From contig CAMPIQ010000080.1 in the NCBI GenBank assembly GCA_946886475.1, forward strand, positions 1-16,264: a stretch of DNA of 16,264 bases, read 5' to 3'. A program made the position numbers and the translations under genes. The notes under the pieces are model-generated. The model made no database searches. It had not been told where the DNA came from and saw nothing but the letters and a program-made list of their open reading frames with translations. The stretch is from an uncultured Chitinophagales bacterium (GTDB lineage: Bacteria > Bacteroidota > Bacteroidia > Chitinophagales > Chitinophagaceae). Position 1 is the first letter of the stretch; each line of letters begins with the position of its first letter. Positions 1,046 to 16,166 of the stretch are shown here, one piece after another.

Positions 1046-1576
1046 CTATTGCCTGATTATATCGCTCTTTTCAATCCTGAGGCCTCTGGAATTGCCCCAC
1101 ATACCCAAACCCGCATAAGGACTTTTTCCATTAGCACCGGATCTTAACCCTGTACTTCCCATAGTGCCCGGACTGCTTCCTGTTCCTACTGTTCCCATAC
1201 CGGTTATAGTACCCGAAGAGGTTGTTGAACTTGGAAATACCCGCAGTTTTCCATGAGCATAACCATAAGCACCCTTTGGCATTCCAAGAATTTCGACATC
1301 CTTAATCTCCGGCTCAATTCCCTTTGCCCTTATATTTAGTGTATGTATTAACGGATCTGAAATGATAAAATTCACCTGAGGGCCCATGGCCGGGTTACCC
1401 ATCCTGGCCTCGTAAGCGGAAAAAGAATTGAGTGTGATAACCGCACTATTACCTGACTGGTCAGAAGGTTTGAGTCCATACCCTTTTTTTACCCCTGATC
1501 TCTCTGTGTTTTTTTGTGCTCCGGCTGAATGTGCCAGCATGATAACCGTACACAAACATATCCATATCTTTTTCAT
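1046..1576 (-). CDS. Secreted hypothetical protein with Gly/Ser-rich tail
   Basis: A 176-residue protein on the - strand, convergent with the preceding small ORF. The N-terminus MKKIWICLCTVIMLAHSAGA-Q is a good Sec signal peptide, with a basic n-region, a hydrophobic core and an AGA-Q cleavage site near residue 20. The mature part has a compact region (about 50-110) containing 'VNFIISDPLIHTLNIRAKGI' and 'KDVEILGMPKGAYGYAHGKL'. A low-complexity Gly/Ser/Thr-rich stretch follows (about 113-155). No catalytic motif or known domain is recognised. It is probably periplasmic or surface-exposed. The signal peptide and an open frame of this length make a real gene likely, but the function is unknown. 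Confidence 0.6.
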   Translation of the reverse strand: MKKIWICLCTVIMLAHSAGAQKNTERSGVKKGYGLKPSDQSGNSAVITLNSFSAYEARMGNPAMGPQVNFIISDPLIHTLNIRAKGIEPEIKDVEILGMPKGAYGYAHGKLRVFPSSTTSSGTITGMGTVGTGSSPGTMGSTGLRSGANGKSPYAGLGMWGNSRGLRIEKSDIIRQ

Positions 1577-2597: not shown

Positions 2598-3551
2598 ATG
2601 AAACCAAAAGAATCTTTCTGGAAAAAAATAGGACTTCACGACTGGCTATTAAAAAAAGAACAGGAACCCGGCCTTCACCAGCCAGCAGTGCTTACACCCA
2701 ATGATGTTTATCATTATATACTGGAAAAATTCAGTCAAAGCATAGCGGAACTTTCATTTGCCGACCGCCTGGTTTTTTACCATGAATATATCATAGCATT
2801 CAATGCCGATGATTTCAAAGACTTCATGGATAATAAGAAAGGGATCTTTGGATTGATTGTTCAGGAAACGGTTAAAAAGTTCTATGATGTGTTGAAGGAA
2901 CACCGGTCAAAAGGTAAAACCGTTGAGCCTTCGGCAAGTAAATGGGTATTCCGTTTTGTGAGCCACCCGGATTATGCCAGAGGGGATAAAGGCTTTATTG
3001 GCAAATTATTGCCGGGCAACATCTCTGGTGGCAATGAAAACCTCAGGGTTACTTTCATTCCCCGCCAGACCGGGATCGCCCAGACCTTTGACATCAATCC
3101 TGATATTCTTCAGGGATTTACCTTTTATAGCGAAGGTTATTATGAAGTTCCATATGAATCGAATTTAACCTATGATGAGGCCAGGGCAAAACAACTAACC
3201 AATACCGTTAAAGCCCGTTTTGAAACGATTGTGCCTGAAAAAGAATTCGCCGGACGCAAGATCGAGTACATGATGAGAGATGATGAGATAACCGTAAGCG
3301 GCAAGGATGAAAGCAGGGAAGCGACGAACATCTTCCGCATTCCAAGTGAATGGGTTAACACGCCACACCTCCGGATCAGATATGATAAGAATGACAATAA
3401 ATTTTTCCTGGCTTCGTTTGGCGAAAAAACCCTTTTGAATGAAAAAGAAATTAACAGAAGCGATCTGCATCACCCTCAATGGACAGAACTGCCATTAAAC
3501 AGCAGGATCATGCTCAATGGTATTGTTGGTATAAATATTTTTAAATCTTAG
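2598..3551 (+). CDS. Degenerate FHA-domain protein with FhaA-like N-terminal region
   Basis: A 317-residue cytoplasmic protein and the first gene of the array. The ATG at 2598 (MKPKESFWKKIGLHDWLLKK) is preferred to the upstream TTG at 2532, whose extra 22 residues look non-coding. The C-terminus (about 190-317) reads like an FHA beta-sandwich: a loop with SGKD (234-237), 'HLRIRYDKNDNKFFLASFG', 'KTLLNEKEI' and a final 'SRIMLNGIVGINIF'. The phosphothreonine-binding residues of canonical FHA domains are missing: GR is GK (235-236), and the Ser-Arg of SRxH is replaced in N254-T255-P256-H257. The middle part, 'FYHEYIIAFNADDFKDFM' followed by helices and 'SKWVFRFVSHPDYARG', resembles my recollection of the N-terminal domain (DUF3662) of actinobacterial FhaA. 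That match is inference. The tight downstream genes point to a scaffold or adaptor role in the phosphorylation system. Confidence 0.85.
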   Translation: MKPKESFWKKIGLHDWLLKKEQEPGLHQPAVLTPNDVYHYILEKFSQSIAELSFADRLVFYHEYIIAFNADDFKDFMDNKKGIFGLIVQETVKKFYDVLKEHRSKGKTVEPSASKWVFRFVSHPDYARGDKGFIGKLLPGNISGGNENLRVTFIPRQTGIAQTFDINPDILQGFTFYSEGYYEVPYESNLTYDEARAKQLTNTVKARFETIVPEKEFAGRKIEYMMRDDEITVSGKDESREATNIFRIPSEWVNTPHLRIRYDKNDNKFFLASFGEKTLLNEKEINRSDLHHPQWTELPLNSRIMLNGIVGINIFKS

Positions 3552-3555
3552 CAGC

Positions 3556-3645
3556 ATGGTTATTTCCATTATACTTTTTGTGATATGTGCACTTATGCTG
3601 GTTGTACATTTTCGTGAAATAAAATCTACTCATGACAAAACCTGA
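3556..3645 (+). CDS. Candidate 29-residue single-helix membrane microprotein
   Basis: A short ORF lies between the FHA-like gene and the phosphatase gene. It starts 4 nt after the upstream stop and overlaps the phosphatase start by 14 nt in another frame. The product reads MVISIILFVICALMLVVHFR followed by EIKSTHDKT. It has one hydrophobic helix (about residues 2-18) with a short charged C-terminal tail, the look of a small inner-membrane protein. The spacing on both sides fits translational coupling within the operon. Against it: it is very short, and the stretch could simply be a linker carrying a chance ORF. I know of no matching family. Conservation of the helix between the same two genes in relatives would be the test. 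Confidence 0.4.
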   Translation: MVISIILFVICALMLVVHFREIKSTHDKT

Positions 3646-5029
3646 TCATTTTTTCGGTGCCACTGATACAGGAAGGCAAAGAAATAATAATGAAGATGCT
3701 TTTATAGCCCAGGCGCTGGCAGATAACAGGATACTGGCCTGCGTAATTGATGGCGTTGGCGGCTATGAAGGTGGTGAAGTGGCTGCTGCAATAACAAAGG
3801 ATACGATTTTAGAAAACTTCAGAAGATCAGCTGCCGACCTTTCTTTAAAGATGAAAGCTTCTCTTGTGCAGGCCAACCAGAAGATTTATGAAGACAGACT
3901 TCAGAATCCCGACAGGAACAACATGGCCTGTGTGGTAACGCTTACCATTGCAGATATGGAGCAAAGCCAGTTCCATTATGCACATGTGGGGGATACCCGG
4001 TTGTACTTATACAGGGACCGCTCCCTGGTGAAAGTAACAAGAGACCATTCTTTTGTAGGTTTTCTTGAGGACAATAAACGAATTTCTGAAGAGGAGGCAA
4101 TGAACCATCCCAAGCGCAATGAGATCAACAAAGCTCTTGGATATGACCCCAACATGGCTGGTGTTGCGGATTATATTGAAACCGGCGCTTCACCTTTCTT
4201 ACCCGGCGATCTCCTACTGTTATGCAGTGACGGACTCACCGACCTGGTGGACCATAAAACCATTTCCTCAATCCTTAATAATTCTACTCCTTTAAATGAA
4301 AAAACAAGATTACTGATAGATGCTGCCAATGATGCCGGAGGAAAAGATAATATCACGGTTGTTTTGGTTCACAATCATAAAAAAGCCTCAAAACAAAAAG
4401 CAACAAGACCAGTTCTGATAAAAAAAAACGAGCAGGCACCAAAACAGGTTGAAATAAAAAAAACTCCGGTAATGCATAAACCGGAAAAAAAGAAAGGGAA
4501 AGGATTGATCGTGTTTCTTTTGTTGTTATGCATTTTACTTGCAGCGGCAGTTTATTTTTTATGGCAGCGAAACATTAAAAAGCCTGAACCTGTAAATACG
4601 GTTACCCAGGCAGTTAAAAGAAATGCCTCGGAACAGAGGCTTCTGGACAGCCTGGAAGTTTCACCTTTTATTTTCCTTGACAGCAGCTACGGCAAAGCTA
4701 TCACCATATCTGACCTGGTGCTGGTACAAAAAGATTCATTATACATCAATGGCAATGGACTTACATTATCAAGTGATAGTGCTTATAACGGGCCGCTATT
4801 TGTAACCCCTCCATCATGCAATTATATTCTACTGGAAAACCTGGTGATCGAAGGTTTCACCATTGGCCTTACCACATATAGTAAAGTTGTAAAACTTAAA
4901 AATGTAAGGTTTATCAATTGTAATATACCGGTTCAGTATAATACATCCCTACCATTGAACAGATCATTAAGCGGTACTATAACGGACAGTTTATTATTCA
5001 AACCGGATTCCACATCAAAAAACAGGTAA
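3632..5029 (+). CDS. Membrane-anchored PP2C-type Ser/Thr protein phosphatase
   Basis: A 465-residue protein that should remove phosphate from Ser/Thr in the cytoplasm, opposing the two kinases encoded downstream. Residues 1-250 form a PPM/PP2C domain. It has GATDTGRQRNNNEDAF (9-24, metal-binding Asp22), VIDGVGGYEGG (38-48, Asp40/Gly41), HVGDTRLYLYR, CSDGLTDL (198-205, Asp200) and GGKDNITVV (236-244, Asp239), so the Mn/Mg ligands are intact. A Lys-rich linker (about 250-290) leads to one transmembrane helix (about 291-311, GLIVFLLLLCILLAAAVYFL). An extracytoplasmic tail of about 150 residues follows. The segment 'YILLENLVIEGFTIGLTT' and then 'VVKLKNVRFINCNIP' looks like rungs of a right-handed beta-helix. 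The layout (cytoplasmic PP2C, helix, exported tail) recalls mycobacterial PstP, though the tail is different. The stop codon overlaps the next start by one base (TAATG). Confidence 0.96.
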   Translation: MTKPDHFFGATDTGRQRNNNEDAFIAQALADNRILACVIDGVGGYEGGEVAAAITKDTILENFRRSAADLSLKMKASLVQANQKIYEDRLQNPDRNNMACVVTLTIADMEQSQFHYAHVGDTRLYLYRDRSLVKVTRDHSFVGFLEDNKRISEEEAMNHPKRNEINKALGYDPNMAGVADYIETGASPFLPGDLLLLCSDGLTDLVDHKTISSILNNSTPLNEKTRLLIDAANDAGGKDNITVVLVHNHKKASKQKATRPVLIKKNEQAPKQVEIKKTPVMHKPEKKKGKGLIVFLLLLCILLAAAVYFLWQRNIKKPEPVNTVTQAVKRNASEQRLLDSLEVSPFIFLDSSYGKAITISDLVLVQKDSLYINGNGLTLSSDSAYNGPLFVTPPSCNYILLENLVIEGFTIGLTTYSKVVKLKNVRFINCNIPVQYNTSLPLNRSLSGTITDSLLFKPDSTSKNR

Positions 5030-8000
5030 TGCGATTTTTCAGGGAAAGAAATATTGAAAGGATATTCATGCTACTGATAACAGGCGTGCTCCTGATTTTG
5101 TTTATACGCCTGGGAACAGTGCTTGAGAAAGACTACAGCGAAGTACCACAACGAATTGCCAATGGCACAATGGTAAATCTGAATGGTGGCCAGTTAGACC
5201 AGCGGATCAAAAACTTATTGGAAAAAGGATTTTATTTAGAAGACCCCCGCGATATAAACCTGGCTTACAAAACTGTTTCACAAGGTCTTGCTTCGGAGGC
5301 TGAAATGGATAACATTGGTGAACTTAATAAGAAAAGATTTTTTCTTACAACAGAGCAGGCATATAAAGAAGGCGGAGAGTCGTACAGAAAAAGAGCGGAA
5401 CTGGCAAGAACCCTGCTGGGCTTTGCCGGAGATGACTCACTACGGTTCAACCAGGAATTAACAAACCCACCTCATCTGCCATCAGTTGTTGATGTTCAAA
5501 TGGGAAAACATAAGCTGGAAGGGAAAGTACAGGACCGCGACAACAATAATTTAAATGGTGTTCTTGTAAGATTGCAATTAATTTTGCCGGATAGTGCCAG
5601 GCAGATTGAACTGACGAATGCCGATCTGGTTGAAGAAAATACAAATACCATCCGGAAAGTCTTTGTTGTTGATTCCGCAAACAGGGAGCTTCAATCATTA
5701 GCCGTTTATGCAAGAACAGATGCTTCTGGAAAATTTACATTCAAAGGACTGCCCGATGAACAGGCTTATGAGGTATTACCCCTTAAACCCCATTTCCAGT
5801 TTGGATCTTCAAAAGGTGTTGAGAAATTAACGAAGAATGTTTCTTTTGATTTCACCGCATCTCCACATACGATCAGGCTTTTCTCCACCAGGGATTTTAA
5901 TAATCTTAAAAAAGAAGGGGCGCTTATTGTAAGAACACCTGATGAAGCCTCAAAAGGTTATACAATAATCACCACAGGCTTTTTTATTGCATTCTTTCTT
6001 TTGCATTTATTTCTAACCATAAGTTTTCCTAAGGCCGACCAGTTAATATTACCCGTGCTGATGCTGCTTACAGGAATTTCATTTCTCACTCTTTTAAGTT
6101 TGCAGGATCCTTTGCGGGACAGATTCCTTGCACAAAATATGTTCTGGTATTTTGCCGGAGGTATTGTGCTGATGGCCTTATTATTACTGTTCAACCTGCG
6201 GAGGTTCACCACTGATTCAGGATTATTCAGGTTGTTTGCATTTAAAAATGATCCTAAGGCTGCCAATGGCTGGCCCTGGGCAGCAGCCGCTGCCATCTTA
6301 TTGCTCCTTACCATTATTTTTGGAAGCGGTCCGGAAGGAAGTGGCGTAAAAGTGAACCTCCTTGGGTTTCAGCCCAGCGAGATCGTTAAATTTCTATTAC
6401 TGGTTTTCCTGGCGGGTTTCTTTACCGCAAATGAAAAATTCATTGCAGAATACGGCAGATGGCAGAAACGGTGGTCCTTCTTTTCATTTGCTTTATTATC
6501 CATTATAGTTTCCATTTTATTATTTCTTATCCTCGGCGACCTCGGACCCGCAATGGTGGTCTGCTTTACCTTTATAGTTTTGTTTTCATTTTCGAGAGGT
6601 GATTTTTTACTGGCGGTAGGAGCCGCAGTATTATATGTGCTGGCGATATGGCTCACAAAAAACCTTTGGATAGCCACTGCCATTCTTATTGTTATTCTTG
6701 TAACAGCATCTTTCGCCATTAAAAAAGGAATGAGTGAATCAGCTGTTATGGTGATTTTGGTAATGGCTGGTTTTTTATTACTTGACCAGGTACCTTTTAT
6801 AGATGATCTTTTTCCAGGTCCTGTGGAAAGACTGGTAGAAAGAAAATCCATCTGGCAGGATCCATGGAATAACGAAGTGTTTGGCGGCGACCATATTGCA
6901 AACAGCATATGGGCTATGTCGAGTGGCGGCATAGAAGGCCAGGGTATTGGAGAAGGTTTTGCCAAGACCATACCTGAAGCCCATACCGATATGATACTGC
7001 CTTCCATGGGAGAAGAGTTTGGTTTGATGGGCATTCTCTCTGTATTTATCCTTTTTATCATTTACCTGCACCGCTCCATCATCATCGGAAGACAAACCGG
7101 AACGCCCTTTCTTTTTTATTTATGTGCAGGCATTGGCATCAGCACCTTTATACAATTTTTGCTGATAGCAGGAGGTTCCATTGGTGCACTTCCACTTTCG
7201 GGCGTCTCCCTTCCTTTTATGAGTTATGGAGGTTCATCGCTTATCATGAATATGATGGCCGCAGGGTTTTTATTATCTGCATCCAATGCTCAGGGAACAG
7301 CAGTACAAATGAAATTTATTACGAAACAGCAGGACAGGAATCTTATACCTGCATTGGTTGCTTCATTTATAGGAATTCTCTTATTAGGTATTACCGTTAC
7401 CCAATATCTGTTCAAAAACAAAAAATGGGTAGTACAACCTGCTCTGGTGGCAGACAGGAGCGGTGCAAGGATGTTTAGTTACAATCCACGTATTGCCATA
7501 TTAATGAACCGCCTTGGCGCCGGAGATCTTTTAGACCGTAATGGAAGATTGCTGGCAACAAGTAAACCTGAATCAATCGGGAAAAACAGGGATAGCCTGG
7601 TTAATGCTGGTCTTGATGCCATGGCCCTTCAGGCTATAAGCCGCAAACGTCTTGACAGGTATTATCCATTTGAAGAACACATGTTTTTCTGGATCGGAAA
7701 TTTAAATACAGGCATATTTATGGGAGGCACCAATGGATATTTTGCCGAATACGAACACATTGCTGAACTGCGAGGCTTCCCCGCTCCCACAACGCATTTT
7801 GAAGTAACGGCAAGCCGGTTCAGGGAGAATCGTTTTCTTCCAAAGCGAAGGCAGGAAATGACCGTGGCTAAAAAAGATTATTCTGCCATATCAGATCTTC
7901 TGCTGGCAGGCATCAACAGCAAAGAAGTAGAAGCATTCAAACAAAGGAACCGTGATGTACAGCTGACCATGGATGCCGCATTACAAACAGAGATCCAGCA

Positions 8001-9108
8001 GTCGCTTCAATTACTGGACACATTACGAAACAGCCGTATTTCTGTAGTGATCATGGAGGACAGTACGGGCGATGTTCTTACTTCCGCTGCCTTTCCACTA
8101 CCCTCAATTGATGAACCTGAAAAACTTTTGCTGACCACAGCTGAAGAAAACAAACTGTCGTACTGGATCACCAATCGTGATCCCGGATTTACCCATGCCA
8201 CCCAGCCCGGTTCTGCAGCCAAACTGGTTACCGCCTCCGCTGCATTCAACAAAATGGGAATGGAGGCAGCCAGTAAAAATATCCTGATCCGTAAACAGGA
8301 CCTTATCAGGGTGAAAGGTGAAGAACCGGATGAAACAGGTAATATCAGTTTACAAAGAGCAATTGTACGTTCAAATAATCCGTTTTTCATTAAGCTCGCC
8401 AACCAGGAAAGGCTTCAGGAAGAAATGGCTACCATTTACATGCAGACAGGCATGTTTTTGCGTGGAGTGGGTGGTTATTATTTTAATGGGAACCATAGCA
8501 ATACCGTACAACAGGACAAATGGAGGGAATTCTGGAGGTCAACAGAATTTAAAAGCCTTGATCGCTATAACCCGAACGACATCCGGAAAACCAGGGCTAC
8601 AGGTGTTTCTGGTATGGCCTGGGGTCAGGGAGAACTCATCTCCACGCCCGCATCCATTGCAAGGGTTGCATCATCCATTGCAAACAATGGGATCATGAGG
8701 GAGAACCGTTATGTAATGAAGATCAGCGATTCTCTTTTGGGATTGAATGAAGCTATTGAGGTATTGGAAGATCCGCAGTATGCCGAAGCGCTGACCTCTT
8801 ATATGAAAGCACAAAGTGCAGGAAAAACAAATAAATTAAAAATTGCTGTAGCAGGAAAAACCGGCACGCCGGAACGTATGGTAAGAGGCAAACGCATAAA
8901 TGACGGGTGGTATGTATTTTTTGCACCAAAGGCCAACGGAAGAGGCCATATTGTGGTCTGTATAAGAATTGAAAATACCAAAGGCTCAAGTGTAGCGGTG
9001 AACCTGGCTGGAACTCATATCATTCCCGCGCTGTTGAAAAGAGGCTATATCCGGGGATTTGCAACACCAGGCCGTCAGCCTGACATTAGAGTACAGGCTG
9101 AAGAATAA
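5029..9108 (+). CDS. SEDS glycosyltransferase fused to penicillin-binding transpeptidase (RodA-PbpA fusion)
   Basis: A 1359-residue inner-membrane protein predicted to polymerise and cross-link peptidoglycan in one chain. An N-terminal helix (about 12-29) is followed by a periplasmic region (30-310) with a carboxypeptidase-regulatory-like beta-sandwich (about 160-250: KLEGKV..., DASGKFTFKGLP). Residues about 311-760 are a RodA/FtsW-type SEDS domain with many hydrophobic helices. It has FQPSEIVKF (447-455), GDLGPA (503-508), the SSGG..GQGIGEGF loop (632-644), PEAHTD (649-654, with the essential Asp of this family) and LPFMSYGGSS (728-737). A last helix (about 772-791) anchors a class B PBP ectodomain: LLDRNGRLLA, 'VQLTMDAALQ', the SxxK motif S1062-K1065 in QPGSAAK, the SxN motif S1115-N1117 in RSNNPFF, and K1277-T-G-T in AGKTGT. 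All catalytic residues I can check are present. SEDS and PBP proteins are usually separate, cooperating polypeptides. The start overlaps the phosphatase stop. Confidence 0.97.
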   Translation: MRFFRERNIERIFMLLITGVLLILFIRLGTVLEKDYSEVPQRIANGTMVNLNGGQLDQRIKNLLEKGFYLEDPRDINLAYKTVSQGLASEAEMDNIGELNKKRFFLTTEQAYKEGGESYRKRAELARTLLGFAGDDSLRFNQELTNPPHLPSVVDVQMGKHKLEGKVQDRDNNNLNGVLVRLQLILPDSARQIELTNADLVEENTNTIRKVFVVDSANRELQSLAVYARTDASGKFTFKGLPDEQAYEVLPLKPHFQFGSSKGVEKLTKNVSFDFTASPHTIRLFSTRDFNNLKKEGALIVRTPDEASKGYTIITTGFFIAFFLLHLFLTISFPKADQLILPVLMLLTGISFLTLLSLQDPLRDRFLAQNMFWYFAGGIVLMALLLLFNLRRFTTDSGLFRLFAFKNDPKAANGWPWAAAAAILLLLTIIFGSGPEGSGVKVNLLGFQPSEIVKFLLLVFLAGFFTANEKFIAEYGRWQKRWSFFSFALLSIIVSILLFLILGDLGPAMVVCFTFIVLFSFSRGDFLLAVGAAVLYVLAIWLTKNLWIATAILIVILVTASFAIKKGMSESAVMVILVMAGFLLLDQVPFIDDLFPGPVERLVERKSIWQDPWNNEVFGGDHIANSIWAMSSGGIEGQGIGEGFAKTIPEAHTDMILPSMGEEFGLMGILSVFILFIIYLHRSIIIGRQTGTPFLFYLCAGIGISTFIQFLLIAGGSIGALPLSGVSLPFMSYGGSSLIMNMMAAGFLLSASNAQGTAVQMKFITKQQDRNLIPALVASFIGILLLGITVTQYLFKNKKWVVQPALVADRSGARMFSYNPRIAILMNRLGAGDLLDRNGRLLATSKPESIGKNRDSLVNAGLDAMALQAISRKRLDRYYPFEEHMFFWIGNLNTGIFMGGTNGYFAEYEHIAELRGFPAPTTHFEVTASRFRENRFLPKRRQEMTVAKKDYSAISDLLLAGINSKEVEAFKQRNRDVQLTMDAALQTEIQQSLQLLDTLRNSRISVVIMEDSTGDVLTSAAFPLPSIDEPEKLLLTTAEENKLSYWITNRDPGFTHATQPGSAAKLVTASAAFNKMGMEAASKNILIRKQDLIRVKGEEPDETGNISLQRAIVRSNNPFFIKLANQERLQEEMATIYMQTGMFLRGVGGYYFNGNHSNTVQQDKWREFWRSTEFKSLDRYNPNDIRKTRATGVSGMAWGQGELISTPASIARVASSIANNGIMRENRYVMKISDSLLGLNEAIEVLEDPQYAEALTSYMKAQSAGKTNKLKIAVAGKTGTPERMVRGKRINDGWYVFFAPKANGRGHIVVCIRIENTKGSSVAVNLAGTHIIPALLKRGYIRGFATPGRQPDIRVQAEE

Positions 9109-9155
9109 ATATGGACTGTTAATTGAAGTAATTACAATAAAATACAACTATCAAC

Positions 9156-9938
9156 ATGTTTGATTTTCATAAACAAAAAAAGAATCCTGTTCAGCCCGAT
9201 GTTAAAACCATCAGGCACCTCCTTTTGAATTTTATCAAGGACCATTTGCAAAGATGGGAAGGGGAAGGCAGCTTCATCAAAGGGATGCAATTATTCCTTG
9301 CTCCTGAACAGGATAAACATGTTTATGAAGCCGTGGTTTATTTTCATGAACCCGGGAAATTTCAACATGAGGAAGTTCAAAAAATTGCAGACGATTACGC
9401 AATTGAACTGCCGCCGGCTTGGACGATGGATATTTTTTTTAATGAACAATTACCGGAAGAAGCGGTAAAATCAAAAGAGCTTCCTGTTGCCCTGCATATA
9501 GTTACCAACAGAAAGCCAACCATCAATAAACCAACTTCCGCTAAACTAACCGTGTTGAAAGGCGAAGCTGAAAATGAAACCTATAAGATCAATGCAAAAG
9601 ATGGAAAGATCTGTATTGGCAGGGACAGGGAAACGCAGACATCGGAAGGATTTTTCAGGTTGAACAAGGTTGCATTTCCCGGAAACAGCAATGATCCGGC
9701 TAATAAATATATAAGTCGCCAGCATGCACATATAGAATGGAATGCAGAAGCAGGTTGTTTTTTTCTTTTTGCAGATGAAGGCGGATTGCCACCAAGAAAT
9801 AAAGTAAAGGTGAGGAAGGGTGATGGAGAACTGATAAAACTCCAGGCCTTGCAGATCGGCCATCCCCTGGGAGAGAACGACCAGATCATAATTGGTGAAA
9901 TGGCACTGTTACAATTTAATTATACGGGAGATCAATAA
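9156..9938 (+). CDS. FHA-domain phosphothreonine-binding protein
   Basis: A 260-residue soluble cytoplasmic protein. The C-terminal FHA domain (about 128-258) keeps the canonical binding residues: IGRD (G155-R156), ISRQHAHIEW (S187, R188, H190) and RNKVKV (N215), so phosphothreonine binding is expected. A long loop between the GR and SRxH strands (about 157-185, with GFFRLN and VAFPGNSND) is larger than usual. The N-terminal region (1-110) has helices 'IRHLLLNFIKDHLQRWEG', then strands 'QLFLAPEQDKHVYEAVVYFH' and 'WTMDIFFNE'. Its alpha/beta plan resembles the N-terminal region of the first array gene and possibly FhaA. The gene follows the SEDS-PBP gene after 47 nt and ends 1 nt before the first kinase start, so FHA reader and kinase are translated together. 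Likely partners are the autophosphorylated kinases or their substrates. Confidence 0.95.
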   Translation: MFDFHKQKKNPVQPDVKTIRHLLLNFIKDHLQRWEGEGSFIKGMQLFLAPEQDKHVYEAVVYFHEPGKFQHEEVQKIADDYAIELPPAWTMDIFFNEQLPEEAVKSKELPVALHIVTNRKPTINKPTSAKLTVLKGEAENETYKINAKDGKICIGRDRETQTSEGFFRLNKVAFPGNSNDPANKYISRQHAHIEWNAEAGCFFLFADEGGLPPRNKVKVRKGDGELIKLQALQIGHPLGENDQIIIGEMALLQFNYTGDQ

Positions 9939-9939
9939 A

Positions 9940-11415
9940 ATGGCTAAAGTGTTCACGATAACTGAGGGACTGGAAAATTTAGGCGCATTAAAAACAGGTG
10001 GCCAGGGTTCTGTATACAAAGGAAAAAGGATTGGTGAGATCATATCTGCAGTAAAAATATTACCAACACCCATGGTCAATGATGATCCGGGCAATAAAAA
10101 ATATGCAGATTTTCAGAATGAGGTCAATAAACTGCAACGCGTAAACGAGCAACCCAACCCCAATGTGGTAAAGATCCTGGGATCCGGCATAACTGAAACA
10201 GGAGGTTTCCCATTCATTGAAATGGAATTTATTGAAGGCCCTGATCTCTGTGAATTGCTGCAACCACCAAATGACAGGATTTTCACTATCAAAGAGACCA
10301 TCAAAGTGGCCGAACACTTAGCACATGCTCTTTCGCATTGTCATAATCTTGATGTAAAACATGGGGACATCAAAAGTAATAATGTAAAATACAACCGTCA
10401 TACCGGCAATTATGTGTTGCTTGACTTTGGTTTAGCTGTTATGTCGGATGAACAAAGAAGAACAAGTCTCCGGAATGCAGGTGCTATTGAATTCATGGCC
10501 CCTGAACAAAATGAAGGAAAGATGTTTTTTCAAACAGACGTGTACAGCTTCGGCATCATCCTGTTTGAATTACTTGCCGGACAGGTGCCTTTTAAACTGG
10601 ATAGCAATACGGAAACTGCGCGGAATCATATAATGCTGGCGCATATGGAAACAGGGGTTCCGGACCTGGTTTTGTTACGTAAAAATAATTTACCTGCAAA
10701 CTGGCCAGAAGAAAAGAAGGAAGCAGAAATGAATTTACCAGCCTGGTTAACCCATGTAGTTTACAAATGCCTTGAAAAACAGATTGAGAACCGGTTTGCA
10801 AATGGTGAAGTATTGTATGAATTTGTTTGCCTGAACAATACCCTTTCCACCGGTACTCCTGAGCTGAATGCAGGCAACACAGCTATACTTCAGGAAATAA
10901 ATAAACGGCTTATTTCAGAAAAAGAAATCTTACAGGAACAACTCCTGCTTCAGCAAAAAGCCACAGAGGAAAAAGAAAAGGAATTAATTCTATTCAGAAA
11001 CAGCCTGCAACATCATGCTATCTCTACTTCCCCATCTCCTGGTCATGGTGTTTCAAAAGCGGCTTTTTCAGGACTGGTCTTCACCAGCATCATTCTGGCT
11101 TCCATTGCCGCCTATGGATTATTTTTCCGTAATGCAAACAGCATTGCTTCAACCGAGGTAGTAGTACCGGCAGACAGTACCCACTATTATGATTCAATAG
11201 AAAAAGCTGCAGATGAAGAAAGGGAAAGCACTGCCCGGATCAAAAGAAAAGAAAAAGACGATCCCATTGTGGCAGATACCGTCAGTTCAAAAAAAGATAC
11301 AAACCAGGTTAAGTTCAATTCCACCAGGAAGGATTCAATCAAAAAAAACATAACTGTTGATACTTCCATGGAGAACAGTAATGATTTACTGCCATCAGAA
11401 AAAAATGAGTATTGA
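9940..11415 (+). CDS. Membrane Ser/Thr protein kinase 1 (non-RD, no PASTA)
   Basis: A 491-residue kinase. The start at 9940 (MAKVFTITEGL) is chosen over an in-frame upstream start inside the FHA gene because the second kinase begins with nearly the same residues. The kinase domain (about 10-300) has the Gly-rich loop TGGQGSVYK (19-27), the ATP-binding Lys39 in SAVKIL, the catalytic loop H141-G-D143-I-K145-S-N-N148, DFG at 162-164 and the APE triplet in FMAPEQ (187-189). The Arg of HRD is Gly, making this a non-RD kinase. The activation segment holds Thr175/Ser176 as candidate autophosphorylation sites. A coiled coil (about 317-353) precedes one transmembrane helix (about 376-397). The extracytoplasmic tail (about 398-491) is charged and Ser/Lys-rich with no fold I recognise. 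The gene follows the FHA gene by 1 nt. Confidence 0.96.
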   Translation: MAKVFTITEGLENLGALKTGGQGSVYKGKRIGEIISAVKILPTPMVNDDPGNKKYADFQNEVNKLQRVNEQPNPNVVKILGSGITETGGFPFIEMEFIEGPDLCELLQPPNDRIFTIKETIKVAEHLAHALSHCHNLDVKHGDIKSNNVKYNRHTGNYVLLDFGLAVMSDEQRRTSLRNAGAIEFMAPEQNEGKMFFQTDVYSFGIILFELLAGQVPFKLDSNTETARNHIMLAHMETGVPDLVLLRKNNLPANWPEEKKEAEMNLPAWLTHVVYKCLEKQIENRFANGEVLYEFVCLNNTLSTGTPELNAGNTAILQEINKRLISEKEILQEQLLLQQKATEEKEKELILFRNSLQHHAISTSPSPGHGVSKAAFSGLVFTSIILASIAAYGLFFRNANSIASTEVVVPADSTHYYDSIEKAADEERESTARIKRKEKDDPIVADTVSSKKDTNQVKFNSTRKDSIKKNITVDTSMENSNDLLPSEKNEY

Positions 11416-11462
11416 TCTGTATATTCAAAACAATTTTACTTAAAATTTATCTAATACACCAT

Positions 11463-11488
11463 ATAACACTGTTATGTAGGATACAGTG
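11463..11488. promoter_or_regulatory. Inverted repeats in the gap between the two kinase genes
   Basis: The 88-nt spacer between the kinases holds two overlapping perfect inverted repeats: ATAAC-ACT-GTTAT (11463-11475) and CACTGT...ACAGTG (11467-11472 / 11483-11488). The spacer is AT-rich and is the largest gap between the phosphatase gene and the second kinase gene. An internal operator, a processing hairpin or a weak attenuator are all possible. There is no T-run suggesting an intrinsic terminator. The stems are short, so chance is not excluded. Confidence 0.25.
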
Positions 11489-11503
11489 CATTAAATTTAC
11501 TTA

Positions 11504-13381
11504 ATGGCGAAAGTCTTTACCATTACGGAAGGATTGCAAAATCTCGGAGCGCTTAAAACCGGAGGTCAGGGTTCGGTTTACAAAGCAAAGCGAACCGGAG
11601 AAATGATTACTGCGGTAAAGATCCTGCCCACACCAATTTTCAATGAAAGTCATGATGATAAGAATTATGCTACTTTCCAGAACGAGGTTCAGAAATTAAA
11701 AAAGGTAAATGAAGAGCCCAATCCCAATGTGGTCAAGATCATATCTTCAGGTTTGACCGAATCGGGCGGCTTTCCATTTATCGAAATGGAATTCATTGAA
11801 GGTCCAGATCTTGAAGAATTACTCAAACCACCACATCCTCCGGTATTCACTATCCGGGAAGCAGTAAAAGTAGCAGAGCATCTTTCTAATGCATTATCGC
11901 ACTGCCACCGTTTGAATGTAAAGCATGGTGACATCAAAAGCAATAATGTTAAATTCAATGTTCATTCCGGAAATTACGTCTTGCTTGATTTCGGACTTGC
12001 TGTAATGTCTGATGAACAACGCCGCACAAGTTTAAGGCAGGCTGGTGCCATTGAATTTATGGCCCCTGAACAAAGTGAAGGCACCACCTTATTTCAAACG
12101 GATGTTTACAGTTTTGGGATTATTATTTATGAATTGCTTGCAGGCACAGTGCCTTTTCCGTTAAGGGATAAAAGTGATACGGCACGAAATCAGGTTATGC
12201 TGGCACATATGGATGCCTCGCTTCCGGATCTGTTAACCTTACGCAGACAAAACCTTCCTTCGGACTGGGATGATGATAAAAAAGCACTCGAAGTAAGTGT
12301 TCCAGCCTGGCTTATCAATACTATTTATAAATGCCTGGATAAAAAACCGGAGAACCGGTTTTCCAACGGAGTTCAACTGCACAACCATATTGTACGTAAC
12401 AGCCTGGCACCTGTAGTAAAGCAGGAGATAAATTCATTTCAGTTAGAGCAGTTGAAAATTGAAAATGAAAAACTGCGGAATGAAAAAAAAGAATTGGAAA
12501 CGGTACTGATGCGGTATCAAACCCCTCCGCAGTCGCGGGAACCAAACTATGTATCTACACAGGAGATACACAGGCGCTCTTCTTCATCCAGCATTCTTAT
12601 TGCTTTTTTTATAACACTGGTGGTAATAGCTGCTATCATATTTTTTGCTTTAAAGGAGAATGATCCGAAATCAATTACTGATCAGCAACAGCAGACAGCA
12701 GACAGTATAAAACAACCGGTAACATATAAAGTAGCAGCCACCCGCGCTTATTTTCATAACCAGCCAGATGAATCAACAAGAAGAAGTGCATTTATCCCTG
12801 CCAATGCATCACTGGAAGGGACAGACGAAAAAAATGGTTTTGTTTATACTGAATTTACAAACAGTAAGGGGCAGGTGTCCATTGGCTGGTTGCGTAAGGA
12901 AGACCTGATTACGCTGGAAGAATGGACCACCCAGCAAAACAATGCAAGACAAAGACAGGAGCAGATCAAAGATCAGTTAAAGGAAGCGGCTGATTATATG
13001 AATAACAACCGGGTAACTGAAGCACTTGTAATTTATAGTGACCTGGCTGCACAGGAAGTAACTGAGGCCATGTATCATTATGCAAATATTACCCTGCAGG
13101 GCAAAAACAACCATCTCAGCTGCCAGGAAGCATTGTCTTTAATGGAACAGGCGGCAGAAAAAGGTCATGCTGCTGCAAAAAGAACACTGGGATTCCTGTA
13201 TGTTTTTGCCGACCAGCGGGATGTACTGGCACTGAGCGGATACGAACAATGCGGGTACCCGAAAGATGTGATCAAAGGCACACAATTACTGATACAGGCT
13301 ATAAGGGATGGAGATACTACAGCAAGGGATATCATGGAACAGATAAACCGGGAAGACGAAGTACCACCTTCAGACCAGTAA
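11504..13381 (+). CDS. Membrane Ser/Thr protein kinase 2 with SH3-like and Sel1-like extracytoplasmic domains
   Basis: A 625-residue paralogue of the preceding kinase. The catalytic domain (about 10-300) has the same landmarks at the same positions: TGGQGSVYK, Lys39, the HGD loop 141-143, DFG 162-164 and FMAPEQ. It too is non-RD. A coiled coil (about 307-335, QLEQLKIENEKLRNEKKELE) precedes one transmembrane helix (about 363-383, SILIAFFITLVVIAAIIFFAL). The extracytoplasmic part begins with an SH3-like domain (about 407-470: YKVAATRAYFHNQPD, GFVYTEF, GQVSIGWLRKEDLI). It ends with a helical Sel1/TPR-like region (about 485-615: EALVIYSDLAAQEVTEAMYH, SLMEQAAEKGHAAAKRTLG). Bacterial SH3-like domains often contact peptidoglycan or peptides, and Sel1-like repeats bind protein partners. 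A sensory role at the envelope is inferred, analogous to PASTA domains in PknB. It follows kinase 1 after 88 nt. Confidence 0.97.
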   Translation: MAKVFTITEGLQNLGALKTGGQGSVYKAKRTGEMITAVKILPTPIFNESHDDKNYATFQNEVQKLKKVNEEPNPNVVKIISSGLTESGGFPFIEMEFIEGPDLEELLKPPHPPVFTIREAVKVAEHLSNALSHCHRLNVKHGDIKSNNVKFNVHSGNYVLLDFGLAVMSDEQRRTSLRQAGAIEFMAPEQSEGTTLFQTDVYSFGIIIYELLAGTVPFPLRDKSDTARNQVMLAHMDASLPDLLTLRRQNLPSDWDDDKKALEVSVPAWLINTIYKCLDKKPENRFSNGVQLHNHIVRNSLAPVVKQEINSFQLEQLKIENEKLRNEKKELETVLMRYQTPPQSREPNYVSTQEIHRRSSSSSILIAFFITLVVIAAIIFFALKENDPKSITDQQQQTADSIKQPVTYKVAATRAYFHNQPDESTRRSAFIPANASLEGTDEKNGFVYTEFTNSKGQVSIGWLRKEDLITLEEWTTQQNNARQRQEQIKDQLKEAADYMNNNRVTEALVIYSDLAAQEVTEAMYHYANITLQGKNNHLSCQEALSLMEQAAEKGHAAAKRTLGFLYVFADQRDVLALSGYEQCGYPKDVIKGTQLLIQAIRDGDTTARDIMEQINREDEVPPSDQ

Positions 13382-13422: not shown

Positions 13423-13620
13423 ATGAAAGAAAAACAATTTGACCCTGCACGATACAATGAGAAATCTCCTGCACCAGGACTTGCAGCTGTAAATACGCAT
13501 AATCCGGAAGAAGAAGAACCGGATAACGTACCTCCGCAACAGGTGATGAATGAAGAAGAAATGAAAAGGGTTGAACAGGAACAAAACCGTACCCGGCAAA
13601 GCGAAAACGAAGAATTATAA
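13423..13620 (+). CDS. Small acidic, probably disordered protein
   Basis: A 65-residue ORF 41 nt after the second kinase gene, on the same strand. The frame is open further upstream, but the start MKEKQFDPARYNEKSPAPGL at 13423 is the first that does not run into the kinase gene. The sequence is rich in Glu, Pro, Asn and Gln (PEEEEPDNVPPQQ, MNEEEMKRVEQEQNRTRQSE) and has no hydrophobic core. This suggests an intrinsically disordered cytoplasmic protein with a helical C-terminal half. I do not recognise the family. Its place at the end of a kinase-phosphatase array makes a substrate or adaptor role conceivable, with Thr/Ser at NTHNPE and NRTRQS, but that is only inference. Confidence 0.6.
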   Translation: MKEKQFDPARYNEKSPAPGLAAVNTHNPEEEEPDNVPPQQVMNEEEMKRVEQEQNRTRQSENEEL

Positions 13621-13680
13621 AAATGAGGCGAAGGTCTTTTGCATGCGAGCATTGTTATTAACTTCATGCAAACAGATCTT

Positions 13681-14808
13681 ATGCGATGGTTCTTTATTTT
13701 CTTCATTACACTTTATTGGTTCAATGCCGCTGCACAGAACAAAAGACCGGCTGATCTCGGCATTTCCATAGGGGTAATGCAAAGAGGCAACTTAAATGCC
13801 ATAACGGATGTGCCTGGAGTTAAAGTGGGGCATACCACCATCATCAGGGGCGATTCGGTAAGAACAGGCGTTACGGCTATCCTGCCTCATGGTGGAAATA
13901 TTTTTCAGCAAAAAGTTCCTGCTGCTATTTATACAGGAAACGGATTTGGCAAACTTTCAGGGGTTACGCAAATCCAGGAACTGGGAACGATTGAATCTCC
14001 CATTATATTAACCAATACTTTAAGCGTTGCTGCCGGGATGCAGGGCGTGATTCAGCACACATTACAACAAAAAGGAAATGAACAGGTGCGTTCAGTAAAT
14101 GCTGTTGTTGGCGAAACCAATGATGGCGGATTAAACGACATCAGGGGTATGCATGTAAAAATTTCAGATGTTACCCATGCCATTAAACATGCAAATGATA
14201 AAGTGGAAGAAGGAAATGTTGGCGCAGGCACAGGTACTATATGCTTTGGATTCAAGGGCGGTATTGGAACTGCTTCGAGAAAACTACCGCAATCAGCAGG
14301 CGGGTATGTAGTTGGCGTACTTGTTCAAACCAATTTTGGCGGGGTGTTACAGATTGATGGTGTTCCTGTAGGTGAGGAGCTGAACAAATTTTACCTCTCT
14401 AACCAGTTGAATAAAAAAGAAGATGGTTCGTGTATGATCGTGGTTGCTACCAATGCACCACTTGATAGCCGCAACCTGGAAAGGCTGGCAAAAAGAGCCT
14501 TCCTCGGACTGGCCAAAACAGGTGGTATAGCGCACAACGGTAGTGGTGATTATATCATTGCATTTTCAACGGATAGTTCATTAAGGGTTCCGTATAATCC
14601 GGAATCATCCATTCAACATTTACCCGTGCTGCACAATGATTTTATTTCCCCTTTGTTTATGGCAGCCATTGAAGCCACTGAGGAGGCCATTATCAATTCC
14701 CTGTTTGCTGCAGAAACCATGAGCTCAAAGAATATGAAAGTGGAAGCATTGCCGGAAGAGAAAGTAATGGACATAATGAGGAAATATAATAGGGTGAAGA
14801 AATTTTGA
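13681..14808 (+). CDS. Exported P1-family (S58, DmpA-like) aminopeptidase
   Basis: A 375-residue protein of the DmpA/L-aminopeptidase-D-esterase family, N-terminal-nucleophile-like hydrolases that mature by self-cleavage. The start at 13681 is preferred because it gives a clean signal peptide (MRWFFIFFITLYWFNAAA-Q). In-frame ATGs at 13639 and 13666 are alternatives. Family hallmarks are NAITDVPGVKVGHTT, 'YTGNGFGKLSGVTQIQELGT', 'VVGETNDGGLNDIRG', 'EGNVGAGTGTICFGFKGGIG' and 'GYVVGVLVQTNFGG'. The predicted autocleavage and nucleophile site is G249-S250 in EDGSCMIVVATNAPL. 'GGIAHNGSGDYIIAFSTD' follows. The protein would act in the periplasm on the N-terminal residues of small peptides. Some relatives take D-amino-acid substrates, so wall-peptide trimming is possible but unproven. 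It lies 60 nt after the small acidic gene and may be read from the same transcript. Confidence 0.95.
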   Translation: MRWFFIFFITLYWFNAAAQNKRPADLGISIGVMQRGNLNAITDVPGVKVGHTTIIRGDSVRTGVTAILPHGGNIFQQKVPAAIYTGNGFGKLSGVTQIQELGTIESPIILTNTLSVAAGMQGVIQHTLQQKGNEQVRSVNAVVGETNDGGLNDIRGMHVKISDVTHAIKHANDKVEEGNVGAGTGTICFGFKGGIGTASRKLPQSAGGYVVGVLVQTNFGGVLQIDGVPVGEELNKFYLSNQLNKKEDGSCMIVVATNAPLDSRNLERLAKRAFLGLAKTGGIAHNGSGDYIIAFSTDSSLRVPYNPESSIQHLPVLHNDFISPLFMAAIEATEEAIINSLFAAETMSSKNMKVEALPEEKVMDIMRKYNRVKKF

Positions 14809-14906: not shown

Positions 14907-16166
14907 ATGATTATCTTTAAAAAACACTCCAGACTCATGACCAAAATCCTGCTGTTCTCCGGGCTTATTGCCATTCTTAGCTGGCAAATGCCATTTCATA
15001 AAAACCTGTTCACTTCCTTTACAGGCCCTTTGCCTGCAAAAGAGATCAGAACCGGTGCAGATCAAACTGAAAAATATCTACCTCTTTTGAAAGGAAAACG
15101 GGTAGCCATTCTGGGAAACCAGACCTCTATAATCGGCAACACCCATCTTGTGGATTCCTTACAATCCTTAGGCATCCATATCGTAAAAGTATTCGGACCG
15201 GAACATGGATTTCGCGGCCAGGCCAGCGCAGGTGTTCAGGTAAAGGATGAAATAGATAAAAAAACAGGCATCCCTGTTATCTCTTTATACGGCCCTAAAA
15301 GAAAACCTTCAAAAAAAGACCTGTCTGATGTGGATCTCATGATCTATGATGTGCAGGATGTTGGCTGCCGTTTTTATACAAATATCAATGCGCTGGCGGA
15401 ATTAATGGAAGCATGCTATGAAAATGGAAAAGAACTATTGATACTTGACCGTCCCAATCCCAATGGATATTTTGTTGATGGACCTGTGCTTGACATGAAA
15501 CTGGAATCAGGCATTGGAAGATTCCCAATACCTATAACACATGGAATGACCATTGGAGAGTTTGCGCTCATGATCAATGGTGAAGGATGGCTGAATGATA
15601 AAGTAAAATGCCAGCTCAGCATCATTAAGGTTGCCAATTATGATCATGATATGCCATATGAACTTCCTGTAAAGCCATCTCCCAATCTTAATACCCAGCA
15701 ATCCATTTTACTGTATCCTACCACCTGCATATTTGAGGGTACAATTCTAAATCATGGGAGGGGGACCTATTTCCCATTTACAGTTTTAGGCGCACCGGCA
15801 TTAAAAGGAAAATATGATTTTTCATTTACTCCCACTGGCATTCCGGGCATGTCTGAAACGCCATTGTATATGAATGAAGTGTGTTATGGTCTTGACCTGA
15901 GAAACTACGATACTGAAATTTTAAGAAGAGAGAAAAGGATCAACCTGCAATGGCTTAAAGAATTATACAAAGCTTACCCCGATAAAGAAAAATTCTTTGA
16001 TCATACACAAAGCAAAGAGATCGGAAATGTGGATTTCCGCACCGGTGATTCGAGGTTGAAACAACAGGTAATTGATGATGTGCCGGACGAAGAGATCAGA
16101 AAAAGCTGGGAGCCTGCGCTGGGAAATTATAAAGAAATGAGAAAAAAATATTTATTGTACCCGTAG
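14907..16166 (+). CDS. namZ: NamZ-type exo-beta-N-acetylmuramidase (DUF1343)
   Basis: A 419-residue exported protein of the DUF1343/NamZ (GH171) family, whose characterised members release terminal MurNAc from peptidoglycan fragments. The family signatures are visible: VFGPEHGFRGQASAG (95-109, with conserved Glu99), 'DVQDVGCRFYTNI', DRPNPNG (181-187), 'PITHGMTIGEFALMINGE', 'KPSPNLNT' and NHGRGTYFPFTVLGAP (282-297). The N-terminus is a signal peptide or anchor (TKILLFSGLIAILSW). Met11 at 14937 is an alternative start with a more compact n-region; 14907 is kept because GGCAGGGG lies directly before it. The length is usual for the family. It is 98 nt downstream of the peptidase gene on the same strand. 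Cell-wall turnover or MurNAc salvage is the likely role, thematically linked to the SEDS-PBP synthase upstream. Confidence 0.94.
   Translation: MIIFKKHSRLMTKILLFSGLIAILSWQMPFHKNLFTSFTGPLPAKEIRTGADQTEKYLPLLKGKRVAILGNQTSIIGNTHLVDSLQSLGIHIVKVFGPEHGFRGQASAGVQVKDEIDKKTGIPVISLYGPKRKPSKKDLSDVDLMIYDVQDVGCRFYTNINALAELMEACYENGKELLILDRPNPNGYFVDGPVLDMKLESGIGRFPIPITHGMTIGEFALMINGEGWLNDKVKCQLSIIKVANYDHDMPYELPVKPSPNLNTQQSILLYPTTCIFEGTILNHGRGTYFPFTVLGAPALKGKYDFSFTPTGIPGMSETPLYMNEVCYGLDLRNYDTEILRREKRINLQWLKELYKAYPDKEKFFDHTQSKEIGNVDFRTGDSRLKQQVIDDVPDEEIRKSWEPALGNYKEMRKKYLLYP

What the first reader, a model, noticed from the sequence alone, without database searches (positions are those of the whole stretch)
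2598..13381. Actinobacterial-type fha-pstP-rodA-pbpA-pknA-pknB gene order in a Bacteroidota
The sequence shows, in order and on one strand, FHA-like, PP2C phosphatase, RodA+PBP, FHA, Ser/Thr kinase, Ser/Thr kinase. Mycobacterial genomes carry fhaA, fhaB, pstP, rodA, pbpA, pknA, pknB in almost the same order, and that operon controls cell-wall synthesis by phosphorylation. The overlaps and short gaps here (4 nt, 14-nt overlap, 1-nt overlap, 47 nt, 1 nt, 88 nt) indicate a co-regulated unit. Finding this layout in a Gram-negative lineage suggests an ancient or horizontally moved phospho-signalling/peptidoglycan module, or convergence. The proposal that these kinases and the phosphatase regulate the SEDS-PBP enzyme is inference.
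Basis: partly seen in the sequence, partly recalled or inferred. Interest (0 to 1): 0.85.

Follow-up and report, generated by a model that had tools for sequence, protein, structure and literature searches.

The report
Fused cell-wall synthase with kinase genes
A bacterium of the Bacteroidota carries a compact gene set joining a one-piece cell-wall-building enzyme to protein kinases, a phosphatase, phospho-reading proteins and an unannotated 29-residue membrane protein, and it looks like a distant cousin of the gene set thought to control wall growth in mycobacteria and their relatives.

Summary
It is not unique: FHA1-PP2C-fusion-FHA2 is kept in 77 of 81 fetched relatives, but patchily (12/117, 20/121 and 15/395 genomes of two families and the phylum). 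Four genomes examined also have their own FtsW and RodA, so this is a third, accessory synthase. In trees its SEDS domain lies with RodA of the actinobacterial fhaA-pstP-rodA-pbpA-pknAB operon, apart from canonical FtsW and RodA (100/99; AU tests reject joining it to either). FHA1 is tied through deep relatives to the FhaA N-terminal domain. This supports an ancient shared core, though the PBP evidence is weak. It is not a copy of that operon: SEDS and PBP are fused, no PASTA domain was found, FHA2 lies elsewhere, and the kinase pairs duplicated separately. New here is the conserved membrane microprotein (80 of 80 assessable gaps against 2 of 90 control gaps). One relative fuses PP2C to SEDS-PBP in one polypeptide. 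Control of the synthase by phosphorylation is inferred, not shown.

The parts
2598..3551 (+). FHA1: cytoplasmic protein with an FhaA_N-like N-terminal domain (inferred through relatives) and a C-terminal FHA fold in which the phosphothreonine-binding Arg and Ser are not kept
3556..3645 (+). 29-aa single-pass membrane microprotein MVISIILFVICALMLVVHFREIKSTHDKT
   Evidence: Hydrophobic ATG ORF in 80 of 80 assessable gaps at this place, against 2 of 90 other cluster gaps of 60 nt or more; codon-position variability 0.39/0.18/0.59 and pN/pS 0.36; similar ORFs in six divergent clusters.
3632..5029 (+). PP2C phosphatase: cytoplasmic PP2C domain, one membrane helix (residues 292-310), about 150-residue extracytoplasmic tail
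   Evidence: Pfam PF13672 52.4 bits; tested site residues invariant in 79 of 79; hydropathy; matches 18 PDB sequences, bacterial PP2Cs including PstP (2cm1).
5029..9108 (+). SEDS-PBP fusion, 1359 aa: membrane anchor, transthyretin-like extracytoplasmic domain, SEDS polymerase, membrane helix, transpeptidase
   Evidence: Pfam PF01098 161.2 bits and PF00905 69.9 bits; D654, S1062, K1065, S1115 and N1117 kept in 81 of 81 and K1277/G1279 in 80 of 81; CarboxypepD_reg sub-threshold here but over cut-off in L113 and L114; 13 hydrophobic segments.
9156..9938 (+). FHA2: N-terminal alpha/beta domain plus an FHA domain that keeps the phosphothreonine-binding residues
9940..11415 (+). STK1: Ser/Thr kinase with one membrane helix and a short tail
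   Evidence: PF00069 110.6 bits; HGD catalytic loop and DFG present; membrane helix 371-389.
11504..13381 (+). STK2: Ser/Thr kinase, membrane helix, extracytoplasmic part with weak Sel1/TPR similarity, no PASTA found
   Evidence: PF00069 119.6 bits; Sel1 16.6 bits, sub-threshold; membrane helix 364-382.

Best explanation
The cluster encodes an accessory peptidoglycan synthase in which the SEDS glycan polymerase and its transpeptidase are one polypeptide, switched by reversible Ser/Thr phosphorylation. Membrane kinases sense the envelope through their outside parts and phosphorylate the synthase complex or its partners. FHA2 reads the phosphothreonine marks and recruits or gates the synthase. 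The membrane-anchored PP2C resets the marks. FHA1, with a degenerate FHA face, serves as a scaffold, and the 29-aa membrane protein is a small subunit of the complex, most likely tied to FHA1, which it follows even where no PP2C gene is present (L114, L116). The module descends from the same ancestral SEDS-PBP-FHA-phosphatase unit as the actinobacterial fhaA-pstP-rodA-pbpA-pknAB operon. Shown here: parts, conserved order, intact catalytic residues, the SEDS relationship, and the microprotein as a coding gene by its codon pattern. Inferred: complex formation, direction of control, sensing, and all activity.
For: Order kept in 77 of 81 fetched loci. SEDS domain groups with the actinobacterial operon RodA against all canonical FtsW and RodA rows used, 100/99 in three data sets; AU tests reject joining it to canonical RodA (p 0.005) or FtsW (p 0.007). 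FHA1 connected to FhaA_N through relatives. PP2C fused in frame to SEDS-PBP in L117 and in P0243 and P0246, of which P0243 may be the L117 protein itself, evidence that phosphatase and synthase belong together. Of 19 cluster kinases in the tree, 18 fall in one clade with the kinases beside L113 and L117, SH-aLRT 97. FHA2, PP2C, kinase, SEDS and PBP active-site residues conserved. The four genomes examined also hold separate FtsW and RodA genes.
Against: No phosphorylation, transcript or phenotype data exist. PBP kinship to PbpA is weak: fusion with Bacteroidota PBP2 is not rejected (p 0.051). Kinase position and number vary (before FHA1, after FHA2, one to three copies, none seen in 4 of 81 loci, several of these cut by contig ends). 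One L112 kinase and the kinase near L115 fall outside the cluster clade. The window's FHA1 has lost the pThr-binding residues and reaches no FhaA_N score itself. The divergent loci L114 and L116 have no PP2C or kinase in the 19 kb read around the fusion.
Confidence: 0.6

Rival explanations
1. Convergence: a Bacteroidota-lineage SEDS-PBP fusion independently gained FHA, PP2C and kinase neighbours, so the likeness to the actinobacterial operon is functional, not ancestral.
For: Gene order differs; kinase pairs are independent duplications; FHA2 versus FhaA alignment covers only part of the FHA domain; PBP link weak; kinase and PP2C trees show no exclusive tie with PknAB or PstP; direct FHA1-FhaA comparison is weak.
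Against: SEDS tree and AU tests; FhaA_N over the Pfam cut-off in L114 and L116; an FHA gene beside the related SEDS in a Clostridia record.
Confidence: 0.22
2. The phospho-signalling genes serve some other envelope process and only share a transcript with an ordinary accessory synthase.
For: Kinases and PP2C of this type have many targets in other bacteria (established knowledge); kinase genes shift position between lineages.
Against: PP2C-SEDS-PBP single polypeptide in L117; FHA1-microprotein-PP2C-fusion-FHA2 is a far tighter unit than loose co-regulation would need.
Confidence: 0.13
3. Recent horizontal transfer of the actinobacterial operon into Bacteroidota.
For: The Spirosoma copy lies on a plasmid; distribution is patchy.
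Against: Deep separation of the fusions from RodA; Sphingobacteriaceae and Chitinophagaceae each on one side of a branch; G+C of the cluster like the rest of the window.
Confidence: 0.03
4. A phage-defence or type VI secretion phospho-switch rather than a cell-wall module.
For: Kinases hit PD-T4-6 and MAD6 defence models.
Against: Those hits cover mainly the kinase domain; TssO is sub-threshold (19.6 against 29.2); no other gene of the cluster has a telling defence match; the conserved core is a cell-wall synthase.
Confidence: 0.02

Closest known systems
Actinobacterial fhaA-fhaB-pstP-rodA-pbpA-pknA-pknB operon
   Same: Same kinds of genes; SEDS domains share a branch apart from canonical FtsW and RodA; PP2C phosphatase; FhaA-like FHA1 through relatives.
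   Different: SEDS and PBP fused; FHA2 after the synthase; no PASTA found; kinase pair duplicated independently; extra conserved membrane microprotein; the four genomes examined keep separate FtsW and RodA.
Canonical RodA-PBP2 and FtsW-FtsI synthases
   Same: SEDS plus class B PBP with conserved catalytic residues.
   Different: One polypeptide with an added N-terminal extracytoplasmic domain; SEDS excluded from both clades; below the ftsW and rodA NCBIfam cut-offs.
Natural SEDS-PBP fusion ORFs noted in print (PMC10449877, citing the Rhodococcus RHA1 genome; passages and reference list seen)
   Same: SEDS and PBP in one ORF.
   Different: Here a large family among Bacteroidota, with members named Rhodothermales and Acidobacteriota, set in an FHA/PP2C/kinase cluster in the Bacteroidota loci; the RHA1 fusion was not compared.
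PASTA-type kinases (PknB, StkP)
   Same: Best solved-structure relatives of STK2 and best NCBIfam match of both kinases, though far under its cut-off (146-148 of 450 bits); membrane topology.
   Different: No PASTA domain found; HGD in the catalytic loop (that HRD is usual is recalled).

Membership tests
Actinobacterial pstP/rodA/pbpA/pknAB operon | SEDS gene of the operon's RodA lineage | tested here: met
   Fusion plus operon RodA (plus Monoglobus where included) one side of a branch, 100/99. In quick trees operon RodA and Monoglobus stay outside canonical FtsW plus RodA when fusions are left out (SH-aLRT 99), and the fusions stay apart when those rows are left out.
Actinobacterial pstP/rodA/pbpA/pknAB operon | Separate rodA and pbpA genes | tested here: not met
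   One 1359-aa ORF.
Actinobacterial pstP/rodA/pbpA/pknAB operon | FhaA: FhaA_N plus FHA domain | tested here: inconclusive
   Window FHA1 reaches no FhaA_N score and is sub-threshold for FHA; FHA fold by structure; deep relatives L114 and L116 pass both, and FHA1 proteins align to them full length, E 7e-8.
Actinobacterial pstP/rodA/pbpA/pknAB operon | Second FHA gene directly after fhaA | tested here: not met
   FHA2 follows the fusion.
Actinobacterial pstP/rodA/pbpA/pknAB operon | PASTA-bearing PknB | tested here: not met
   No PASTA match in STK1 or STK2 by Pfam; PASTA-kinase NCBIfam model 146-148 of 450 bits.
Actinobacterial pstP/rodA/pbpA/pknAB operon | Two kinases orthologous to PknA and PknB | tested here: not met
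   Window kinases fall inside the Bacteroidota cluster clade; PknA and PknB rows form their own clade (quick tree, SH-aLRT 97 and 94).
Actinobacterial pstP/rodA/pbpA/pknAB operon | Co-transcription and phospho-control of wall synthesis | not testable with these tools
   Short gaps and overlaps only.
SEDS-class B PBP synthase | SEDS catalytic Asp and PBP SxxK, SxN, KTG motifs | tested here: met
   D654, S1062, K1065, S1115 and N1117 in 81 of 81; K1277 and G1279 in 80 of 81, one row cut; T1278 T in 73, S in 7. That D654 is the catalytic Asp is recalled.
SEDS-class B PBP synthase | Polymerase and transpeptidase activity | not testable with these tools
   -
Canonical RodA-PBP2 (elongasome) | SEDS domain inside the RodA clade | tested here: not met
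   AU p 0.005 against fusion plus canonical RodA.
Canonical RodA-PBP2 (elongasome) | PBP domain with PBP2 | tested here: inconclusive
   AU p 0.051.
PD-T4-6 phage-defence kinase | Kinase of the PD-T4-6 families acting in defence | tested here: inconclusive
   Strong kinase-domain hits, 2.5e-43 and 1.3e-43, also expected of other Ser/Thr kinases; no defence function tested.

The most novel reading that the evidence does not exclude
There is an ancient third lineage of SEDS-PBP cell-wall synthases, besides FtsW-FtsI and RodA-PBP2, built around phospho-control by FHA, PP2C and kinase proteins. Its members include the actinobacterial operon 'RodA'-PbpA (then not an orthologue of canonical RodA) and the one-piece synthases of Bacteroidota and Acidobacteriota. 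In Bacteroidota it carries a dedicated membrane subunit of about 22 to 36 residues that has gone unannotated in the records seen here.
Probability: 0.5. Interest if true: 0.85.

Novelty: new variant of a known kind. Interest (0 to 1): 0.7.

Why it matters
It would extend phospho-controlled wall synthesis of the actinobacterial kind to Gram-negative Bacteroidota, give a one-piece synthase in which control of polymerase and transpeptidase can be studied without loss of partners, and offer a conserved membrane microprotein as a candidate small subunit of such a complex. It also questions whether the actinobacterial operon's RodA is a true RodA, which a denser tree can test directly.

Tried and rejected
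Considered and set aside: recent transfer from Actinomycetota (family-wise fusion tree; G+C); phage defence or type VI secretion; PknA/PknB orthology of the kinases.

Led nowhere: the recalled Bacteroidota promoter pattern gave 0 matches where 1.09 are expected by chance. The sigma-70 and terminator scan was near its shuffles (29 against 23.9, and 17 against 11.3), so it neither supports nor excludes internal promoters. An FhaA_N-type fold for the N-terminal halves of FHA1 and FHA2 could not be tested by fold search: the FHA domain filled the lists, so its absence there says nothing. Profile comparison of FHA1 with actinobacterial FhaA alone was weak (E 0.006, probability 6); the divergent relatives against FhaA matched only in the FHA domain (E 1.3e-6); FHA1 against FHA2 matched only in part of the FHA domain. 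An SH3-like part that I suspected in STK2's outside region got no Pfam support. Neighbourhoods of the Acidobacteriota fusions could not be fetched. The genome counts are lower bounds: each search scored only the first two or five candidates per genome.

Those combining SEDS or FtsW, FHA or kinase, Bacteroidetes or microprotein terms found no paper; one search listed one unrelated paper that I did not open. Four papers were opened: PMC10449877 (passages, outline, first part of the reference list), and PMC6554272, PMC8262863 and PMC11898655 (passages only).

Rows dropped before counts: SEDS trees left out P0350 and P0351 (no match to my motif slice) and the L131 RodA (split over two frames); the wider SEDS tree left out seven near-copies and the AU set also Monoglobus and one Streptomyces row; the PP2C tree dropped two truncated or repeat rows, the kinase tree seven; one search used only proteins over a length limit and without stops (81, 79, 128, 77 and 81 rows). 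In one search the row L168 is labelled 'other' but lies at G034:C1:2730733, about 8 kb upstream of the L113 fusion.
Full report

DISTRIBUTION. A scan of GTDB contigs gave 241 relatives of the fusion, of which the best 80 were kept. With a Spirosoma oryzicola plasmid this makes 81 loci. Of these 81, 77 hold FHA1, PP2C, fusion, FHA2 in that order; two contigs lack FHA1 and one lacks FHA2 at a contig end; Spirosoma has FHA1, PP2C, kinase, kinase, fusion, FHA2. At least one kinase was found in 77 of 81 loci, after FHA2, before FHA1, or both. The fusion is accessory: 15 of 395 genomes of the phylum, 12 of 117 of the family of G001 (Flavisolibacter longurius) and 20 of 121 of the family of G003 (a Mucilaginibacter) at E 1e-40, all lower bounds because few candidates per genome were scored. 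The four genomes examined (G001-G004) hold separate FtsW and RodA genes as well. Within the 82 fusions, Sphingobacteriaceae (56 rows) and Chitinophagaceae (20 rows) each need one change on the FastTree tree, with 6 rows in no group, which fits inheritance with loss more than traffic between families.

DEEP RELATIVES. Divergent fusions in the phylum were read with their surroundings. L110 and L111 keep FHA1, PP2C, two kinases, fusion, FHA2. L112 keeps kinase, FHA1, PP2C, fusion, FHA2, kinase. L113 has a LysM/SLT transglycosylase gene, an FHA gene with a sub-threshold FhaA_N match (19.9 of 25 bits), PP2C, fusion and a HEPN_Swt1-FHA gene. L114 and L116 have an FhaA_N-FHA gene next to the fusion but no PP2C or kinase in the 19 kb read. 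In L117 the PP2C domain is fused in frame to SEDS-PBP (PP2C 36.3, SEDS 169.7, transpeptidase 127.6 bits), and two database proteins have the same architecture (P0243 and P0246; P0243 may be the L117 protein itself). Related fusions carry Rhodothermales, Thermoanaerobaculia, Blastocatellia and Bryobacteraceae names, though most listed rows have none.

THE MICROPROTEIN. Between FHA1 and PP2C every one of the 80 assessable sources (79 loci plus window) holds an ATG-started hydrophobic ORF of 20-50 codons; in the other gaps of 60 nt or more in the same clusters only 2 of 90 do. In 77 of 82 sources it carries the strict motif [HN]F.[DENS][IV]K after the membrane stretch; the five others are two variants (L074, L079), Spirosoma and two contigs cut there. 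Variability by codon position is 0.39/0.18/0.59 and pN/pS is 0.36 over 400 random pairs of 74 aligned blocks, with a proportion of synonymous change of 0.77. Hydrophobic ORFs of 22-31 codons, counted from the ATG nearest the membrane stretch, stand directly after the FHA1-type gene in L110, L111, L112, L113, L114 and L116; in L114 and L116 the next gene is the fusion. None was seen in three gaps of the Tsukamurella operon. These six have no codon test of their own. Positive charges after the membrane stretch suggest an inside C-terminus (inference).

KINSHIP. SEDS trees of 41, 42 and 40 rows put the fusions and the operon RodA of four Actinomycetota (with a Clostridia SEDS that stands beside an FHA gene, where included) on one side of a branch and all canonical FtsW, SpoVE and RodA rows used on the other, support 100/99. 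AU tests reject fusion with Bacteroidota RodA (p 0.00014) and with Bacteroidota FtsW (p 0.0011), with all canonical RodA (p 0.0052), with FtsW (p 0.0067), and also operon RodA with canonical RodA (p 0.0072). In quick trees, leaving the fusions out keeps operon RodA and Monoglobus outside canonical FtsW plus RodA (SH-aLRT 99), and leaving those rows out keeps the fusions apart (100). A second Nonomuraea SEDS falls with canonical RodA (98/95). The trees are unrooted, some branches are long, and the canonical set is small, drawn from records on hand. The PBP tree agrees only weakly (89/73); fusion plus Bacteroidota FtsI is rejected (p 0.009), fusion plus Bacteroidota PBP2 is not (p 0.051). FHA1 proteins align full length with those of L113, L114 and L116 (E 7e-8, probability 94.6); L114 and L116 pass Pfam's FhaA_N cut-off (26.5 and 27.4 against 25). 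Direct comparison of FHA1 with actinobacterial FhaA is weak (E 0.006). Cluster PP2Cs form one group (86/97) and PstP another (96/93), both apart from two other Bacteroidota PP2Cs (100/99), while a third Bacteroidota PP2C falls with PstP (88/81), so no exclusive tie is shown. Of 19 cluster kinases, 18 fall in one clade with the kinases beside L113 and L117 (quick tree, SH-aLRT 97); one L112 kinase and the one near L115 fall outside on long branches. The pairs in the Flavisolibacter-like, Mucilaginibacter, Pedobacter and Spirosoma-like rows look like separate duplications, so they are not PknA and PknB.

MECHANISM. SEDS and PBP catalytic residues, PP2C site residues and kinase HxD, DFG and APE residues are kept in nearly all copies. 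FHA2 keeps the residues used by FHA domains to bind phosphothreonine in 81 of 81, whereas in 77 FHA1 proteins the Arg position is variable (Arg not among the five commonest residues) and the Ser is Asn in 68 (the role of these residues is established knowledge of FHA domains). Hence FHA2 is the likely reader and FHA1 a scaffold. The fused PP2C of L117 argues that phosphatase and synthase act together. In Actinomycetota the operon's Fha, PstP and Pkn proteins are linked to growth and division (PMC6554272 and PMC11898655, passages), which is the ground for the analogy, not a test of it.

WHAT IS KNOWN. Single-ORF SEDS-PBP fusions are mentioned in PMC10449877 with the Rhodococcus RHA1 genome as reference. 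[quoted passage not shown] The searches named under Tried and rejected found nothing on such a cluster or microprotein in Bacteroidota; most subscription papers and all bioRxiv preprints are not covered.

Noticed in passing
window 14907-16166 and 13639-14808: Downstream genes: a NamZ-type exo-N-acetylmuramidase (both NamZ domains over cut-off) and a family S58 peptidase; NamZ acts on peptidoglycan, but no link to the cluster was tested.
   Followed up: no
L001 (NZ_CP089545.1): The Spirosoma oryzicola copy of the cluster lies on a 137-kb plasmid, with the kinases between PP2C and the fusion.
   Followed up: partly
L117 8762-12916: PP2C, SEDS and PBP domains in one 1384-aa polypeptide; the kinase upstream carries WD40 repeats.
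   Followed up: partly
L113 12435-13805; L117 12979-14253: The FHA2 place is taken by a HEPN_Swt1 plus FHA protein, and a LysM/SLT transglycosylase gene lies upstream of the cluster.
   Followed up: no
L060 and L077 (NZ_LGEL01000011.1): Pedobacter panaciterrae O48 has two copies of the cluster about 100 kb apart on one contig with identical fusions; one copy's FHA1 reads in two pieces.
   Followed up: no
L141 / L180 (NZ_OY725743.1 137154-140139): A Clostridia record (Monoglobus) has adjacent FHA, SEDS and PBP genes with no PP2C or kinase annotated in the 23 kb read; its SEDS falls with actinobacterial operon RodA (94/84).
   Followed up: partly
L115 (G135:C121): Genome G135 carries a second, strongly diverged SEDS-PBP fusion near a kinase gene.
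   Followed up: no
L112 11654-13042: A kinase with its own FHA domain over the Pfam cut-off closes the L112 cluster.
   Followed up: no
L004 14050-18298: About 4.2 kb of other sequence lies between the fusion and FHA2 in Paraflavisolibacter caeni; its content was not read.
   Followed up: no
window 731-1009, 1046-1576 (-), 13435-13620: Three small ORFs without Pfam or PHROG matches.
   Followed up: partly
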